Shown piece after piece: positions 54,197-62,030 of a stretch of 62,358 nucleotides of DNA (position 1 is the first letter of the stretch; each line of letters starts with the position of its first letter). The DNA is from Clostridia bacterium (GTDB lineage: Bacteria > Bacillota > Clostridia > Christensenellales > Aristaeellaceae): assembly GCA_017512805.1 (NCBI GenBank), contig JAFWES010000016.1:1-62358 (forward strand), read 5' to 3'. Made by a program: the position numbers and the translations under genes. Below the pieces are notes generated by a model. It ran no database searches, was not told where the DNA came from, and saw only the letters and a program-made list of their open reading frames with translations.

Positions 54197-57088
54197 TTAC
54201 TTCAGGCCGTTGATCACCGCTTTAAACTCGCCGGAATCCGCGAAACCGCTCAGGATATCAGCCAGACTGATGCCGGCATCAAGCTGCTCGACCCATCCGG
54301 CGAACCCTTCGTCATCCGCTTCCCGATACAGGTACATCCGGTACAGAACCCGGACAAGCTCTTCGTGACTGAGCTGTTTACGCTGAAATTCAGCCGAGAA
54401 AAAGAAGTAACGGGCGATCTGCTCAGGCGTCTTCGCTCCTGTCGCGATCTGCCGGGTATAATCGTTCAGGCTCTCTTCGTCCGCTTCTCTGCCAAGAATG
54501 GCCGCATAGCAGTGGGACACGAAGTCCCGGATTTTTCCTTCGTTCGGGTTTGCCGGAGTCGGTTCATTCCTGTCGGGTTCTTCGGGCGGGAGCTCTTCAG
54601 ATTCTTCCGGAGCGGCCTCTTCAGCCTCAGCCGGCGCAGCCTTCTCAGTCTCAGCTGGGGCAGGCGCTTCAGCCTCAGCCGGCGCAGCGTCTTCGACCTC
54701 AGCCGGCGCAGGTTTTTCCTCTTTCGCCGGACCGGGATCGTCAGCATCACCCTGTTCAATGATTTCCGCGTCATCCAACGCCAGGATTTCCTCTTCAGAT
54801 ACTTCGAACACATCAATCACATCGAGCTGCGCGTCGGTATCTTCTTCGGAAATGCCTGCGAGAGCATCATCAGCATCAACGCCGCTAAGATCCTGGATGC
54901 CTTCTTCAATGACGGCTGCATCCGTTTTGTCTTCTTCAGCTGCAGCTGCTGTATCAGCTTCGTCTTTGTCCGGATCGTCGTCCGCGGCTGCGGCACCATC
55001 CGCATCCGCGGCACCATCCGCATCCGCGGACGGTTCTTCGTCCATGACGGCATCTGCCGCTGCTTCCTCCTCCACAGCTGCCTCCATCGTTTCGGATTCC
55101 TCCGGGACGGTTCCATCAGCTGTTTCAACCATTTCGGAGAGGGTGATGCCGCTGTCTTCATTTCCGGTTTCAGAAACAGGCTCTGCCGCGGGTGCCGCGG
55201 CTTCTTCCGGCTCAGCGGCCGCTGCGGCTTCATCTGCGACATCGTCAACAGCATCGGCCCCGATGACAGCTGCGTCTTCGGGCACACCCTGCAGCAGCGT
55301 GCCCGGAACGGGAACGGAACCGGGCTGGATGCCGTAATCATTACACAGAGCTCTAAATTCCTGAGAACCGCAGAAGCCGTTAATAATCGCAGCATACGGC
55401 TGACCGTTGTTCAGCGCGTTCACCCAATTCGCTTTTCCGGCAGCGTCAGAAGACCTGTTCAACATTGCCATGTAGAGGACTTCAACCGCCTCGGAATTGC
55501 TGAGGTGTTTACCCAAGAATTCCTGGCTGTTCACGAACCCGTCGATGATGTTGGATGCAGCCTGTGCGCCGCTCTCCAGCGCGTTCGCCCAGTTATTCAG
55601 TCCACCGGCGTCAGGATCGCGGCTGAGAATGATCTGATAGCAGCGCTTCACGAACGCTTCGATCTTTGCCCGTTTGCCGACGGGAGCAGCGTCCACTGAA
55701 CCGGGAATAATCCCATACTGGTTACACAGCTGGATAAATTCCTGGGAACCGCAGAAGCCGTTGATGATCGACGCAAATGTTTCGCCCTGAGACAGCTTGT
55801 CCACCCAGTAAGCCAGACCGGCATCGTCAGGGCTTCGATCAAGCATGGCCAGATAGAGGATGGTTACAGCATCTGCGTCATTGTACTGCTTGTTCAAAAA
55901 CTCCTGGCTGTTGACAAAACCTTCGATGATATTCGCCGCTGCCTGTGATCCGCTTTCCAGCGCGTTTGCCCAGTTATTTAGCCCGCCCGCATCCGGAGCT
56001 CGGTCAAGAATAATCCTGTAGCACCGGGTGACGAATTCTTCAATAAACACTCTTTGCGGTGCGGGAGTAGGGATGGGCGGCGGTGTCATCGAAGGCCCTG
56101 GAGGAGTGGTGTATTCGCCTGTGTATTCAAGCGTATTCATGACGCTTAATACTAAATCTTTATCCCAACTGTTATACCAGCTCAGTGTAATCGCCACTCT
56201 GCCGTTTGCGGTGTTAAATGTCAGATATACGTGATGAAAGCCGTCATCACTGGATTGTTCACCATAATGTACATTCCTGACAGTATGAATGTTATAGCAA
56301 TGATAATTCGAATAGTTCTGATAGTACGTATTCCGGATCTCGGCTTCGCTTAAGGAAGTATCATATTCCCTGATTGTGAAATGGAGACTTGTTTCTCTGT
56401 CCGTGTATGAACGGCCATTTTTATCCTCTCTGTACAGATAGGTGGTCGACGGTACGGTCATATAAATACCGTCTTTCACATAAATACGCTGATCTAAAGT
56501 ATATTCATGTTCAGGGATTTCTTCCTGTTGATTATTTTCATTTTTCATCTTCACAGCCGCAGCTGCCACAGCCATTGGATCTGATACATAGCCTGTCGAA
56601 TAGTACCGCAACCGACCGTCAGCGGAACGAATAAATACCACGGGGAATATCACGGAATTTGTTCCCGCGCCAACTGCTTCAAGACCAGTCCACATACCAC
56701 TTTCATGGTAATAGTCTGAAACCTTTCCGCAGACGATTCCTTTGAATTCATCAGCAAACTCATTCATTAACTCATCTGAGGGATCGTCATGTAAACCGAC
56801 CAGAACGGTAATTCCATTCGCCGCAAGTTCTTCCATGCCTTCCTGAATGCCATAAAGAAATGATCGTGTATTATAGCAATTCACTCTGCCATAAACGAGA
56901 AGGAGATCCTTTCCATTCCCATAGTTTTCGGAAGTCAGCATTTGCCCCCCGGCAGATATCATGGAAAAGGATGGAGCTTTCACATCCGCATTCAATTCGA
57001 CAGGATCCGGCAGCTTTGATGCACAGGCGCTTTGGGAAAGCATACATATTGATAAAACCATCAGAATCACGAAGACCCTTTTTATCAT
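54197..57088 (-). CDS. Exported DUF4214 repeat protein with N-terminal thioredoxin-like domain (paralogue 2)
   Basis: 963 residues, ATG with AAAGGAG upstream. The signal peptide ends SQSACASKL. Residues 35-165 have a redoxin/thioredoxin-like pattern (VKAPSFSMISAGGQML, then DLLLVYGRVNCYNTRSFLYG and VIFPVVFIRSADGRLRYY). A single Cys sits where CxxC would be, so oxidoreductase activity is doubtful. A beta-rich domain runs to about 330, then a Pro/Thr hinge. DUF4214 units begin near 349 and 474 and near 850 at the C-terminus. Between them (about 595-845) lies a Glu/Ala/Asp-rich linker with PAPAEAE-like repeats. The architecture is shared with the 43257 and 59226 proteins, but the N-terminal head is different in each. 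Confidence 0.85.
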   Translation of the reverse strand: MIKRVFVILMVLSICMLSQSACASKLPDPVELNADVKAPSFSMISAGGQMLTSENYGNGKDLLLVYGRVNCYNTRSFLYGIQEGMEELAANGITVLVGLHDDPSDELMNEFADEFKGIVCGKVSDYYHESGMWTGLEAVGAGTNSVIFPVVFIRSADGRLRYYSTGYVSDPMAVAAAAVKMKNENNQQEEIPEHEYTLDQRIYVKDGIYMTVPSTTYLYREDKNGRSYTDRETSLHFTIREYDTSLSEAEIRNTYYQNYSNYHCYNIHTVRNVHYGEQSSDDGFHHVYLTFNTANGRVAITLSWYNSWDKDLVLSVMNTLEYTGEYTTPPGPSMTPPPIPTPAPQRVFIEEFVTRCYRIILDRAPDAGGLNNWANALESGSQAAANIIEGFVNSQEFLNKQYNDADAVTILYLAMLDRSPDDAGLAYWVDKLSQGETFASIINGFCGSQEFIQLCNQYGIIPGSVDAAPVGKRAKIEAFVKRCYQIILSRDPDAGGLNNWANALESGAQAASNIIDGFVNSQEFLGKHLSNSEAVEVLYMAMLNRSSDAAGKANWVNALNNGQPYAAIINGFCGSQEFRALCNDYGIQPGSVPVPGTLLQGVPEDAAVIGADAVDDVADEAAAAAEPEEAAAPAAEPVSETGNEDSGITLSEMVETADGTVPEESETMEAAVEEEAAADAVMDEEPSADADGAADADGAAAADDDPDKDEADTAAAAEEDKTDAAVIEEGIQDLSGVDADDALAGISEEDTDAQLDVIDVFEVSEEEILALDDAEIIEQGDADDPGPAKEEKPAPAEVEDAAPAEAEAPAPAETEKAAPAEAEEAAPEESEELPPEEPDRNEPTPANPNEGKIRDFVSHCYAAILGREADEESLNDYTRQIATGAKTPEQIARYFFFSAEFQRKQLSHEELVRVLYRMYLYREADDEGFAGWVEQLDAGISLADILSGFADSGEFKAVINGLK

Positions 57089-57392
57089 CGGAAAGCTCCT
57101 TTCAGTATCAACCTATTCATTCGGAATATCAGACCCTTGATCCGCGATCGATCGAGAGTCATGTTTCTGCGCGTCCCTCATACGTTCCTTTTTTTATCCT
57201 TTATTCCTGACAACCAGCCAGAGACCTGGGACATCGCACTGCCTGTAACGTGTTTTAATCATAACCAATTTTGGGTGATTCGTCAATGTTCAAGATGGTG
57301 TAAAATAGAGTTCGCAAAAAGGTGGTAGAAAAGCCACCGGGATTCCGATACAATGGAAGTGACCAAACAACTATTGTAAGGAGGAATCCCAG

Positions 57393-58244
57393 ATGGCTCA
57401 AGTCAATGATACCACAAGATTCGCGGAGGTGCTACAGGAAATATCGGCATCAGGTAATCCGCTTCTGACGATGCTGCGGATGATGTGCCAGGAAGTGATG
57501 GAAATGGAGGTGAATCGGCAGCTCAACGCTGATCGAAGCCAACGAACCGACGGGCGGACAGGATATCGGAGTGGATACCGAGAGAGACGCCTGGACACAA
57601 GGCTTGGGACACTAAATCTGGATGTACCTAAGGTGCGAAACGGTGGCTACGTTCCATTTTTCATGGAACGGTGGCAGCGGAGCGAACGGGCTCTGATCAC
57701 CACAATCCATGATATCTACGTGATGGGCGTATCGACCCGAAAGGTCAAGGTGCTGGCAGAAAGCATGGGGATTGAAGGAATATCCGCAGCAGAGGTCAGT
57801 AAGATGGCAAAGCAGTTAGATGATCAGGTGACAGCCTTCCGGAAGCAGGACTTCAGCGGGAAGCAGTACCCGATCCTGTGGGTGGACGCTATCTATGAGA
57901 AGGTGCGGGTGGACAGCCGGGTCGTCAGTATGGCCATAGAGATCGTCTGCGGTGTGAGTACTGATGGTCACCGGGAAGTACTGGCCATAGAACCGATGGC
58001 TGAGGAATCGACGGATTCCTACCTGGCATTATTCAGGGATCTGCGTTCCAGAGGGCTCGAAGTTCCGAAACTAATCATCTCAGACGCGCATAGTGGCCTG
58101 GTCAGCGCGATCCAGCAAGGATTTCCTGGGGCTTCGTGGCAGCGGTGCAAGGTTCACTTTATGAGGAACATACGAGCGAGTTTACCTGAGTCCAGAATCA
58201 ATTCGGACGATGCTGGAGGCGCCTGCAGAAGATTCGCAGGATAG
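57393..58244 (+). pseudogene. Truncated IS256-family transposase
   Basis: 283 codons against about 400 for the family. AAGGAGG precedes the ATG. The N-terminal DNA-binding part and the first two catalytic acidic regions are present: YPILWVDAIYEKVRVD near 165 and LIISDAHSGLVSAIQQGF near 230. The protein breaks off after RCKVHFMRNI. The last 20 residues do not resemble transposase, and the C-terminal catalytic Glu region (STN-ER-N) is missing in all frames downstream. Inactive as it stands. Confidence 0.88.
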
Positions 58245-58287
58245 TGCTGCTTGACGCCTTTCCCCCTGCCGACCTGGACAGAATATA

Positions 58288-58673
58288 CTTGGCCGGTTGG
58301 TCGGTAGCCACGGCGACGGGCGGGATGGGATCGGAACAGAAGCAGACAATTCGCCCACCCATCGCCTGCAGGATGATAACCGGCCAAGCATGCCCTGTCC
58401 AGGCAACCAGACAAGCGGTAGTATTTTTTCCGCATCCGTATAGCGGAAAAAATCTCCACCACTTGTCTGGAGGGCAGGCTTGTCGGCAATCGATGGTTCT
58501 CTGCTCGGGGACGAACAGGCTCGGAGCATTAGGCCTCCAGCTGTGTTTGCCTTACAAAAAAGTAGGAGTTGTACGCGGTGATGGATAATTGCCGCCTCCC
58601 AGCAGCCATCCGGGCGGCAGGCTGGCACGTCCTCGTACCTCGGTCGGCCGCCTACTCGCCCGGAGGCTGCTGG
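58288..58673 (-). ncRNA. Candidate large structured RNA of four adjacent helical domains
   Basis: Plus coordinates of paired arms. Domain 1: 58288-58298 with 58378-58388 (11 bp perfect) enclosing 58312-58324 with 58354-58366 (13 bp). Domain 2: 58391-58396 with 58471-58476, 58407-58421 with 58456-58470 (15 bp), 58424-58433 with 58443-58452 (10 bp). Domain 3: 58484-58490 with 58588-58594. Domain 4: 58599-58607 with 58665-58673 and 58609-58616 with 58657-58664 (17 bp, one bulge). The domains are separated by only 2, 7 and 4 nt. All four imperfect pairs in the 13- and 15-bp helices are A-C mismatches on the plus strand but G-U pairs on the minus strand, so the RNA is probably minus-strand. No coding potential. 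No group II domain V seen. Confidence 0.6.
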
Positions 58674-58760
58674 TTCAGCGGCTAGTTACTCTGACCACGG
58701 TAAACATACTTTGAGGGTTGTATCGGAAAACTTTTTTGTGAACACCTATTGACACAGGCC

Positions 58761-58988
58761 GGAAAGTTGTTCTATGATGAGGATGGTAACGGACGGAGCT
58801 TTTCTGTATATTCTGCCTTTGGCGGTAAGCTGTTCTATAACAAAGACAGTGAGCTGGCTGGATTTAGTGTAGACTCAGCTTTTGGTGGATCATTGTTTTT
58901 TGATAATAATACCAATTACGTTGGAGGAACAGTTGACGGAGCTTTCGGGGGTGATATTGGATATTTTGATGATGATCACGAAGGCTAA
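58761..58988 (+). pseudogene. Fragment of a 21-residue-repeat protein
   Basis: Three consecutive 63-bp units (58761-58823, 58824-58886, 58887-58949), each encoding G-LFY-(D/N)...FSVDSAFG-like repeats of 21 residues, end in an acidic tail and TAA. The frame starts at the very edge of the IS element, with no ribosome site or proper start, so the 5' part has been lost. The repeat type is not one I can name. Confidence 0.6.
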
Positions 58989-59076: not shown

Positions 59077-59225
59077 AAGTGCTTTTTTGTGTTTTTCTCA
59101 GTTTTTTCGCTGCATAATATGCAGAATCGTGTGATGAAAGCGCAAAAAACCCTCGATCACTTGTGGATCAAGGACCTGGAATTCCGAAAGAGTATCATTA
59201 GAGGAAGAGAGGCTGATGTATTTTG

Positions 59226-62030
59226 ATGAAAAAGAGAATTCTGACATGTGTACTTGTTTCTCTGTTGTTTATTGTTATCTGTGCAATGGCCGGTGCAGAG
59301 CAAAAAGGCAGTGATAGTAATACTGCGAGACTCGCTTCGCCGGTTGTTCAGGTTGCTCCTGGAACGATTCAGGTTGGTGAAAGATTTACCGTTTCTGTTA
59401 TAGCAGATTCAAGAAGCAGATATACAACTTTGTATCTATACAATCCTGAAGGAAAATATGTCGGTTTTCAACACTTGGAGGGTACTTCGGGAGATATTTC
59501 ATACTGCTGGTGGCCAGATAACTGTTCCGCCGGAATATATACCTGCACTTTGATAAGCTATGGGGAGAATCTTCCGAACAGTGATACGGTTTCTTTCCAG
59601 CTGAACATCACGGAAGGAAACCGTCCTCCGGCTCCTGATGTTAGACTTAGCCCCGAAAACCCAACTTCGGATGATCAAATTGTGTTTGTTTTTGATCGTG
59701 TTTACGAAGATATAGTTCTTGAGCTTTATAAGAATGGAAGCCGTTATTCTGGATGGAATAAAACTAACACAGACCTGATCGAGTGGCCTTCGACCTTAAA
59801 GGAGGGAGAATGGGAGGCTCAGTTGTCAGTATGCTCCAACGGAATTTGGAGCTATATAAGGAAAATCACCTTCACGGTCGGAGCAACAAAAAGGTATGTC
59901 CCGATCGCTTGTTTCGAAGGATGTACAGGCAGAACTTATACAATATCTCTGAACTATCCGGATTTGCAGACCACTTATCCGATCAATATGCCTGAAATCG
60001 AGGACGATATGCTTGAATACTCGTGGGGATTCAAAATTACCGATGGTACGCATATATATGAGATCTCGACATGTCATTTCAAGTTGAGCAATACCTCGAG
60101 CACAGTTGCAGTCAACATGATGCAGACAAATGTCTGGGAGGTCAAAGAAGACGGAGCGGAAGTAGTTGATGATGCCGAAGTGGTTGTCAGGGGTACGACT
60201 CTGGTGTGGACATTTACTGTTCCTGAAGAGGTTGATTTATCACGGCTCTGGGTATCAGAAGCTTTTGTACAAGTTCCCGGAGCATCCTATTTTGGAGACG
60301 AGCCGGTAAATATTTCATTGGAAGATACACCCACTCCAACTCCCAGTAAGAGAGACCTTATCGAAGCATTCGTAACCCGGTGTTACAAGGTTATTCTTGG
60401 ACGTGCTCCGGACGCAGGTGGACTGAACAATTGGGCAAATGCTCTTGAAAGCGGTGCTCAGGCAGCATCTAATATTATCGATGGTTTTGTGAACAGCCAG
60501 GAATTCTTGAGCAAACATCTCAGCAACGGGGATGCAGTCGAAATTTTGTATAAGGCCATGCTTGACAGACCTTCAGACGCAGGTGGTAAAGCCTATTGGG
60601 TGGATATTCTGTCTCAGGGGAATCCATTCGGTGCAGTAATAAACGGTTTCTGCGGCTCTCAGGAGTTCATGAAGCTATGCAACGAATACGGAATCACACC
60701 GGGCTCAGTGGATGTTGTACCGGCCGGAAAGCGGGCTAAGATAGAAGCTTTTGTGAAACGCTGCTATCAAATCATTCTCAGCCGTGACCCGGATGCTGGT
60801 GGACTGAACAACTGGGCGAACGCATTGGAGAGTGGAGCGCAGGCTGCGTCCAATATCATCGACGGGTTTGTTAACAGCCAGGAGTTCTTGAACAAGCATC
60901 TCAGTAATGGAGACGCCGTTGAAATTCTGTACAGAGCTATGCTCGGCAGAGAGTCTGATGCTGCTGGTAAAGCGAATTGGGTGAACGTACTGAACGCAGG
61001 ATGGCCGTTTGGAGCTGTAATTAACGGTTTCTGCGGTTCTCAGGAGTTCACTGCTCTTTGCAATGACTATGGCATTAAACCGGGTTCAGTAAATGTAAAT
61101 AGCCAGGTACTGCTTGCGGGTACGGATGTGACCGAACCAGAAGAAGTAGATGCCGTAGAACCAGAAAGCATCGATGTTCCAGAAGAGACAGACAACCTTG
61201 CGGCCGAAGATGCTGAACCGTCGACGATCAGTGCCGTAGTAGTAACTGTCCCGGAAGAGACTGTACCAATCGAACTTGAATCTGTAGAAGATGCAGAAGA
61301 AACCGAAGCTGCTGAATCCAAAGGAAGTGAAGAGACTGTAACCGAAGAGAAAGATCAGATCGAAACCGCAGATACAACGGAAGAGAACGTATCCGAAGAA
61401 ACAGAAGATACGGCTTCTGAAACTGTCGTTGAAGAAACTGTTGACACCGAAGAGGCTGATAACATTGAGACTGAAGTCCCAGCAGAGATCAACGTGATCG
61501 AAGTGCCGGAAGACGAAGTAATTGAGGATGAGTCGGTTGTTATCGATCTGGACGAAAGTGAAACAGACGAACCTGTAAATGACAACATTACAGAGCCGGC
61601 CGAAGAGAACGTCATCCCAGAAGAGACTGAAGAACCAGAGGCTGTCAGTGAAGCAGTGAGTGAAGCTGCAATTGAACCTGAGAACGATAGCAAAGCACGT
61701 GAGTTCGTGAATCACTGCTATGCTACAGTTCTCGGCAGGGAGGCGGATGAAACAGGACTGAATGAGTATACCCAGCAGATAGCAACAGGGGCAAAATCGC
61801 CGAAGCAAGTCGCTTTTTCCTTCGTATTCTCCAATGAATTTCAGGGTAAGCATCTCAGTAACGAGGACATTGTCCGAGTTCTGTATCGGCTGTACCTGTA
61901 TCGCGAGGCGGATGCAGAAGGCTTAGCTGCATGGGTGGCACAGCTGGATGCTGGCGTGAGTCTGGAAGATGTCGTAAATGGTTTCGCTGAGTCTGCTGAG
62001 TTTACGGCTATTATCAATGGATTGAAGTAA
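59226..62030 (+). CDS. Exported DUF4214 repeat protein with Ig-like head (paralogue 3)
   Basis: 934 residues from ATG 59226; the ribosome site (GAGAGG) is weak and far. The signal peptide MKKRILTCVLVSLLFIVICA ends MAGA before EQKG. Residues 40-360 are beta-rich, Ig-like or fibronectin-like modules (VQVAPGTIQVGERFTVSV; then PDVRLSPENPTSDDQIVFVF). A Thr/Pro hinge precedes DUF4214 units at about 375 and 503. A Glu/Thr/Val-rich linker spans 628-822, and a last unit near 823 ends INGLK. Codon use is much more AT-rich than in the other two paralogues and most of the window, which suggests separate acquisition. A terminator follows. Confidence 0.85.
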   Translation: MKKRILTCVLVSLLFIVICAMAGAEQKGSDSNTARLASPVVQVAPGTIQVGERFTVSVIADSRSRYTTLYLYNPEGKYVGFQHLEGTSGDISYCWWPDNCSAGIYTCTLISYGENLPNSDTVSFQLNITEGNRPPAPDVRLSPENPTSDDQIVFVFDRVYEDIVLELYKNGSRYSGWNKTNTDLIEWPSTLKEGEWEAQLSVCSNGIWSYIRKITFTVGATKRYVPIACFEGCTGRTYTISLNYPDLQTTYPINMPEIEDDMLEYSWGFKITDGTHIYEISTCHFKLSNTSSTVAVNMMQTNVWEVKEDGAEVVDDAEVVVRGTTLVWTFTVPEEVDLSRLWVSEAFVQVPGASYFGDEPVNISLEDTPTPTPSKRDLIEAFVTRCYKVILGRAPDAGGLNNWANALESGAQAASNIIDGFVNSQEFLSKHLSNGDAVEILYKAMLDRPSDAGGKAYWVDILSQGNPFGAVINGFCGSQEFMKLCNEYGITPGSVDVVPAGKRAKIEAFVKRCYQIILSRDPDAGGLNNWANALESGAQAASNIIDGFVNSQEFLNKHLSNGDAVEILYRAMLGRESDAAGKANWVNVLNAGWPFGAVINGFCGSQEFTALCNDYGIKPGSVNVNSQVLLAGTDVTEPEEVDAVEPESIDVPEETDNLAAEDAEPSTISAVVVTVPEETVPIELESVEDAEETEAAESKGSEETVTEEKDQIETADTTEENVSEETEDTASETVVEETVDTEEADNIETEVPAEINVIEVPEDEVIEDESVVIDLDESETDEPVNDNITEPAEENVIPEETEEPEAVSEAVSEAAIEPENDSKAREFVNHCYATVLGREADETGLNEYTQQIATGAKSPKQVAFSFVFSNEFQGKHLSNEDIVRVLYRLYLYREADAEGLAAWVAQLDAGVSLEDVVNGFAESAEFTAIINGLK

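What the first reader, a model, noticed from the sequence alone, without database searches (positions are those of the whole stretch)
58288..58673. Four-domain structured RNA candidate occupying the 3' part of an IS256 element
About 386 nt fold into four consecutive closed domains with linkers of 2, 7 and 4 nt, using helices of 11, 13, 15, 10, 7 and 17 bp. The segment has no coding potential. The four imperfect pairs in the 13- and 15-bp helices are all G-U if the minus strand is transcribed but A-C if the plus strand is, a sign that selection acted on a minus-strand RNA. It replaces the C-terminal third of the transposase gene, so it is not ordinary IS sequence. It resembles in scale the ornate large RNAs known from Clostridia and their mobile elements (ROOL, GOLLD, OLE, HEARO) or an ORF-less intron. 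I can match it to none by eye.
Basis: partly seen in the sequence, partly recalled or inferred. Interest (0 to 1): 0.78.

Follow-up and report, generated by a model that had tools for sequence, protein, structure and literature searches.

The report
Swappable structured tail of insertion sequences
A folded, apparently non-coding cassette sits right behind the transposase gene of several unrelated jumping genes in rumen-type clostridia and seems to be passed between them, which points to a shared structural function that no known family explains.

Summary
The fold is real (z -8.0 plus, -10.6 minus; 0 of 100 shuffles as stable). The window holds a composite of separable modules (D1 58273-58403, D2 58407-58470, core box about 58502-58524, D4 58589-58690) in a defective IS256-family element. 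It does not replace the transposase C-terminus: about 116 codons are deleted internally, the native C-terminus and stop (58252-58254) remain, and the cassette follows. D1 lies, same orientation, behind transposases of IS110, IS3, IS481-like and another IS256 element and in copies without transposase: 9 of 308 family genomes, 17 loci. D1 covaries strongly: 16 of 28 pairs with double changes, 96% of cells paired against 31-46% when slid, 0 of 500 shuffles. Two IS110 elements with 66-75% identical transposase genes have identical D1 and D2, so the tail appears to be exchanged. No Rfam family matches. Strand is unresolved: wobble pairs favour minus, loop composition plus. Best reading: an exchangeable structured non-coding tail cassette, probably acting as RNA, possibly as single-stranded DNA hairpins; a new variant of IS-borne structured elements.

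The parts
57298..57323 (+). left inverted repeat of the IS256-family element
   Evidence: pairs with 58730-58755 by local alignment
57393..58178 (+). N-terminal part of the IS256-family (Mutator) transposase
   Evidence: Pfam Transposase_mut, profile 7-268 of 379; window residues 1-262 align to L054 23-284
58177..58254 (+). native transposase C-terminus in another frame, stop at 58252-58254; about 116 codons upstream of it are deleted
   Evidence: aligns to L054 residues 401-417
58265..58478 (+). closing stem P1: CCTGCC 58265-58270 with GGCAGG 58473-58478, around D1 and D2
   Evidence: read from alignments; CCGCC/GGCGG in other members; L063 keeps the two halves without D1 and D2
58273..58403 (.). 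D1, long interrupted hairpin
   Evidence: inverted repeat; covariance model R1 match 138 bits; covariation
58407..58470 (.). D2, hairpin with conserved GTAGTATTTT / ATCCGTAT / AAATCTCCACC
   Evidence: inverted repeat; same pattern in 7 of 308 family genomes; alignment of eight
58502..58524 (+). core box (TGCTCGGGGACGAACAGGCTCGG)
   Evidence: pattern match; conserved in alignment of six cassettes
58589..58690 (.). D4, hairpin
   Evidence: inverted repeat; 89% match over 114 bases in contig C9, and its 3' part with the IS256 right end 95% over 152 bases in contig C14 of the same genome
58730..58755 (-). right inverted repeat of the IS256-family element

Best explanation
The segment is a composite of exchangeable, structured, apparently non-coding tail cassettes that insertion sequences of unrelated families carry between the transposase stop codon and the right end. 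Shown here: strong covarying structure; the same place and orientation behind transposases of four IS families; presence in copies without a transposase; separable, swappable domains; a near-identical tail on IS110 elements with diverged transposase genes. Inferred: the cassette serves the propagation or the tolerance of the element whatever its transposase, as a folded nucleic acid read by a host factor. My preferred form is a non-coding RNA made as the 3' tail of the transposase transcript (about 0.45), ahead of a single-stranded DNA hairpin used during replicative transposition (about 0.30), a minus-strand RNA (about 0.15) and something else (about 0.10). The window copy sits in a defective element and may be only a relic.
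For: Covariation: 16 of 28 D1 pairs changed on both sides in 14 sequences, 96.2% of cells paired against 30.7-45.7% slid, 0 of 500 shuffles for four of five measures and 7 of 500 for the fifth. Placement: of 17 D1 loci in 308 genomes, 6 have a transposase or its remains reading into the cassette, all in the same orientation; the IS3 copy lies inside imperfect inverted repeats. D2 alone stands behind rve-type transposases in G012 and G089. Exchange: L007 and L051 are 66-75% identical in four transposase segments but 134 of 134 in D1 and 69 of 69 in D2. Non-autonomous copies: eight in G074. Plus-strand RNA: unpaired bases 37% A on plus, 34% C on minus.
Against: No transcript or function was measured. 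Wobble pairs favour the minus strand under the strict count. Folding energy is lower on minus in 7 of 14 cassettes and on plus in 7. No consistent terminator-like T-run after the cassette (by eye). Few independent lineages: 9 of 308 family genomes, 0 of 90 other genomes across the phylum. Nearly all records are metagenome assemblies; L012, L030, L008, L017 and the G146 copies touch contig ends, so some joints could be misassembled, although IS110 plus cassette occurs in three separate records (L007, L049, L051).
Confidence: 0.6

Rival explanations
1. Strand-specific DNA hairpins: the cassette acts as folded single-stranded DNA during replicative, circle-forming transposition, for instance as a priming or protein-binding site like the exchangeable single-strand origins of rolling-circle plasmids (analogy recalled).
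For: Structure kept in copies without a transposase; independence of transposase family; a wobble bias to one strand would also fit single-stranded DNA; constant orientation, 6 of 6 for D1.
Against: A-rich loops on plus look RNA-like. No single-stranded stage or binding protein was shown.
Confidence: 0.3
2. A minus-strand RNA, antisense to the end of the transposase gene.
For: Strict wobble count 14 to 4 distinct contexts, p 0.03; consensus fold of D1 -49.1 on minus against -43.35 on plus.
Against: Laxer count 22 to 17; C-rich loops on minus; energies split 7 to 7 over whole cassettes; no antisense target in copies without a transposase.
Confidence: 0.15
3. Simple transcription terminators or mRNA-protecting 3' hairpins of IS genes.
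For: Position directly after the stop codon; simpler hairpins stand there in IS110 relatives L070 and L068 (by eye).
Against: No consistent T-run (by eye); conserved loop and box sequences; copies without a transposase.
Confidence: 0.15
4. Selfish palindromic units that insert behind transposase genes and into each other, with no benefit to the IS.
For: D2 occurs alone, six times in G087; three G074 copies have a further hairpin inside an internal loop of D1; GTAG at the foot of D2 recalls REP elements (abstract).
Against: No clean insertion duplication seen at cassette borders (by eye); L063 lacks D1 and D2 but keeps the box; no Y1 transposase match in G087, the D2-richest genome.
Confidence: 0.2

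Closest known systems
IStrons, group I introns fused to insertion sequences (PMC4227781, abstract seen)
   Same: one class of structured element joined to different IS families, restricted phylogenetic range
   Different: no Rfam intron model matches; the cassette is internal, before the IS right end
Bridge RNAs of IS110/IS1111 elements (PMC11208160, passages seen)
   Same: structured RNA in a non-coding end of an insertion sequence
   Different: in L007 the cassette stands beside a separate conserved region that I take for the bridge RNA and that relatives without the cassette also have (by eye); it also occurs in IS3, IS256 and IS481-like elements
GTAG-tagged REP palindromes (PMC3733652, abstract seen)
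   Same: palindrome with GTAG at one foot (D2), often downstream of genes
   Different: longer, few copies, no Y1 transposase match in the D2-richest genome
MRSC mobile/repeat motifs (PMC11109978, passages seen)
   Same: structured motif near transposases, with RNA or DNA form left open by its authors
   Different: no sequence comparison was made here; the example given there has over 20,000 representatives
Miniature inverted-repeat elements (recalled)
   Same: G074 copies are short, repeated and without a transposase, some with apparent target repeats
   Different: they carry the covarying cassette that full-length IS of other families share

Membership tests
any Rfam 15 family (4227 models; that GOLLD, ROOL, OLE, HEARO and intron models are among them is recalled) | match at the family's gathering score | tested here: not met
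   0 matches in the window; only sub-threshold matches at E up to 5 for 58180-58770 and at E up to 2 in five loci
IStron | group I intron core | tested here: not met
   no intron family reported by cmscan
IStron | same structured element in different IS families | tested here: met
   IS110, IS3, IS481-like, IS256
IStron | self-splicing | not testable with these tools
   needs RNA experiments
IS110 bridge RNA | belongs to IS110-family elements | tested here: not met
   also in IS3, IS256 and IS481-like elements
IS110 bridge RNA | loops complementary to target and donor DNA | not tested
   not examined
REP with RAYT | GTAG at the foot of a small palindrome | tested here: inconclusive
   GTAG is invariant in eight D2 copies, but it was part of the pattern for most of them
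REP with RAYT | Y1 transposase in the carrying genome | tested here: inconclusive
   0 matches in G087 with six D2 copies; matches in G000, G030 and G074
REP with RAYT | 20-40 bp units in high copy | tested here: not met
   units of about 64-130 nt; at most 8 copies per genome found
miniature inverted-repeat element (G074 copies) | target duplications | tested here: inconclusive
   direct repeats of 6-9 bp seen by eye at 3 of 8 copies

The most novel reading that the evidence does not exclude
A transposase-independent mobility module: a strand-specific folded RNA or DNA cassette that improves the propagation of circle-forming insertion sequences and their miniature derivatives whatever their transposase, and is therefore traded among IS families as a part.
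Probability: 0.2. Interest if true: 0.85.

Novelty: new variant of a known kind. Interest (0 to 1): 0.6.

Why it matters
If the tail cassette works independently of the transposase, insertion sequences of unrelated families share an accessory part that has gone unnoticed, and the non-coding ends of these elements should be annotated as exchangeable modules. It also gives a natural test set, because related IS occur with D1, with D2, with the box alone or with none of them.

Tried and rejected
Rejected: C-terminal replacement of the transposase; Rfam families; a decayed coding sequence (no Pfam match above cut-off; pairing kept while sequence changes). REP/RAYT is not favoured.

Searches without result: plasmids with the L013 and the window cassette and phages with the L013 cassette (the window cassette was not searched in phages); viral contigs with a second D1 subtype pattern. 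The genome-contig pattern scan gave 7 stretches: 6 carry D1 by R1, of which 5 are contigs already found (same lengths) and 1 is new (L049); L045 is a chance match. The viral scan gave 3: L051 is real, L052 reaches only 16 bits, L053 has no R1 match. A viral search for the IS110 transposase confirmed none although L051 carries one, so that search is insensitive. The box pattern with up to 3 mismatches gave 17 matches in 15 of 308 genomes, against 7 matches of the backwards control; 8 of the 17 are known members or accepted by context (G000, G030, G120, G262, G170, three in G146), 9 were not examined and are probably chance.

Rows dropped: 5 antisense rows of the 22. The strict wobble count (26 hairpins; 19 minus, 4 plus, 22 other; 14, 4 and 21 in distinct contexts) skips mismatches without paired neighbours; the laxer count (18 D1 hairpins) gave 22 minus, 17 plus, 57 other and includes three badly aligned copies with an insert. 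L041-L043 were left out of alignment A4 because of that insert. A4 misplaces part of helix C between subgroups, so single-side changes there are unreliable. Paper searches listed no report of this element; they cover the held open-access library only.

Full report
Observation. The segment is strongly structured on either strand and holds three long inverted repeats. Folded alone, D1, D2 and D4 give -64.2, -33.3 and -66.1 kcal/mol on plus and -74.6, -41.3 and -73.1 on minus; the stretch 58474-58530 is weak.

Setting. The IS256-family transposase matches Pfam Transposase_mut up to profile position 268 of 379. The closest relative found in 308 family genomes, L054 at 55% identity, shows an internal deletion: L054 residues 23-284 match the window's N-terminal part, residues 401-417 match a peptide in another frame that ends at the stop 58252-58254. 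The cassette follows. Inverted repeats at 57298-57323 and 58730-58755 bound the element. I saw no target duplication by eye.

Homologues. DNA searches in genus and family and a covariance model of D1 built from six sequences found D1 in 9 of 308 family genomes: 22 rows, 17 loci once 5 antisense rows are set aside. Six have a transposase, or its remains, reading into the cassette in the same orientation: IS110 (G030), IS481-like (G257; G119 with a broken frame), IS3 (G120, whose frame runs into D1), IS256 (G057, cut by a contig end) and the defective IS256 of the window. The label IS481-like is my reading of rve and HTH matches. One more copy in G057 has only a remnant of the transposase C-terminus (by eye). 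Ten have no transposase in the stretch seen upstream: eight in G074, one in G262, one in G284 (the middle's output was cut). A pattern scan of one genome per species found six real loci, five of them already seen, with titles naming Clostridia, Clostridiales, Lachnospiraceae or Christensenella, two from omasum. One viral contig carries IS110 with the cassette. R1 found nothing in 90 other genomes drawn across the phylum.

Structure. In 14 D1 sequences 16 of 28 consensus pairs carry changes on both sides; 96.2% of cells pair against 30.7-45.7% with slid partners; no shuffle of 500 reached the observed value for four measures, 7 of 500 did for the fifth. The reverse complement gives the same picture, as expected of a hairpin. 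Shuffling ignores relatedness, so the slid control matters more.

Modularity. A closing stem (CCTGCC/GGCAGG here, CCGCC/GGCGG elsewhere) surrounds D1 and a hairpin that is D2 in the window and L007 but a short stem in L012, L013 and L015. L063, an IS110 relative with an 82% identical transposase, lacks D1 and D2 between the halves of that stem but keeps the box. D2 occurs in 7 of 308 genomes at 12 places; behind rve-type transposases in G012 and G089, in G000 and G030 next to D1, and otherwise without a transposase seen beside it or at contig ends. The IS481-like slot thus holds D1 (L012, L013) or D2 (L091); after the stop codon L012 and L091 are 40% identical, their transposase ends 64%. D4 recurs behind an IS3-like transposase (by eye) and, in part, next to an IS256 right end in the window's own genome. 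Three G074 copies (L041-L043) have a further hairpin in an internal loop of D1.

Exchange. L007 and L051 are 66-75% identical in four transposase segments but 134 of 134 in D1 and 69 of 69 in D2, 93-98% in the rest of the tail, and 96.5% in the left end. The simplest reading is recombination between non-coding ends and transposase genes; very strong constraint is not excluded.

Strand. Strictly counted, wobble pairs favour minus 14 to 4 in distinct contexts (two-sided p 0.03); loosely counted 22 to 17. Unpaired bases are 37% A on plus and 34% C on minus; that A-rich loops are usual in functional RNAs is recalled. Folding energy is lower on minus in 7 of 14 cassettes and on plus in 7. I leave the strand open.

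Mechanism. The structure is kept in copies without a transposase, which speaks against mere regulation of that gene in cis. That the carrier families transpose through circular intermediates is recalled, and least sure for IS481. Whether the cassette is read as RNA or as single-stranded DNA cannot be decided from sequence here.

Comparison. The nearest known arrangement is the IStron, one structured element joined to different IS families (abstract), but no intron model matches. IS1111-type elements encode a bridge RNA in the right end (passages); in L007 a separate region shared with relatives without the cassette looks like it (by eye). GTAG REPs (abstract) and mobile/repeat motifs (passages) are looser parallels. 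The paper searches made listed no description of it.

Noticed in passing
window 54200-57088 (-) and 59223-62027 (+): Two large proteins of 963 and 935 aa, each with six DUF4214 stretches, flank the IS.
   Followed up: partly
window 58749-58988 (+): A 79-aa frame with repeated 'SAFGG' motifs beside the IS right end; no Pfam match.
   Followed up: no
G087, loci L016, L020, L096-L100: D2 sits in a larger repeated unit with another hairpin (GGATGATTCC...GGAATCATCC), six copies in one genome.
   Followed up: partly
L003 1616-1840 (contig C9 of the window's genome): The region after an IS3-like transposase holds other strong palindromes and the D2 loop sequence ATCCGTATA before D4.
   Followed up: no
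L041-L043 (G074): An extra hairpin of roughly 90-110 nt inserted in an internal loop of D1, in three copies.
   Followed up: partly
L007 and L051: Non-coding ends of these IS110 elements are far more alike (93-100%) than their transposase genes (66-75%).
   Followed up: yes
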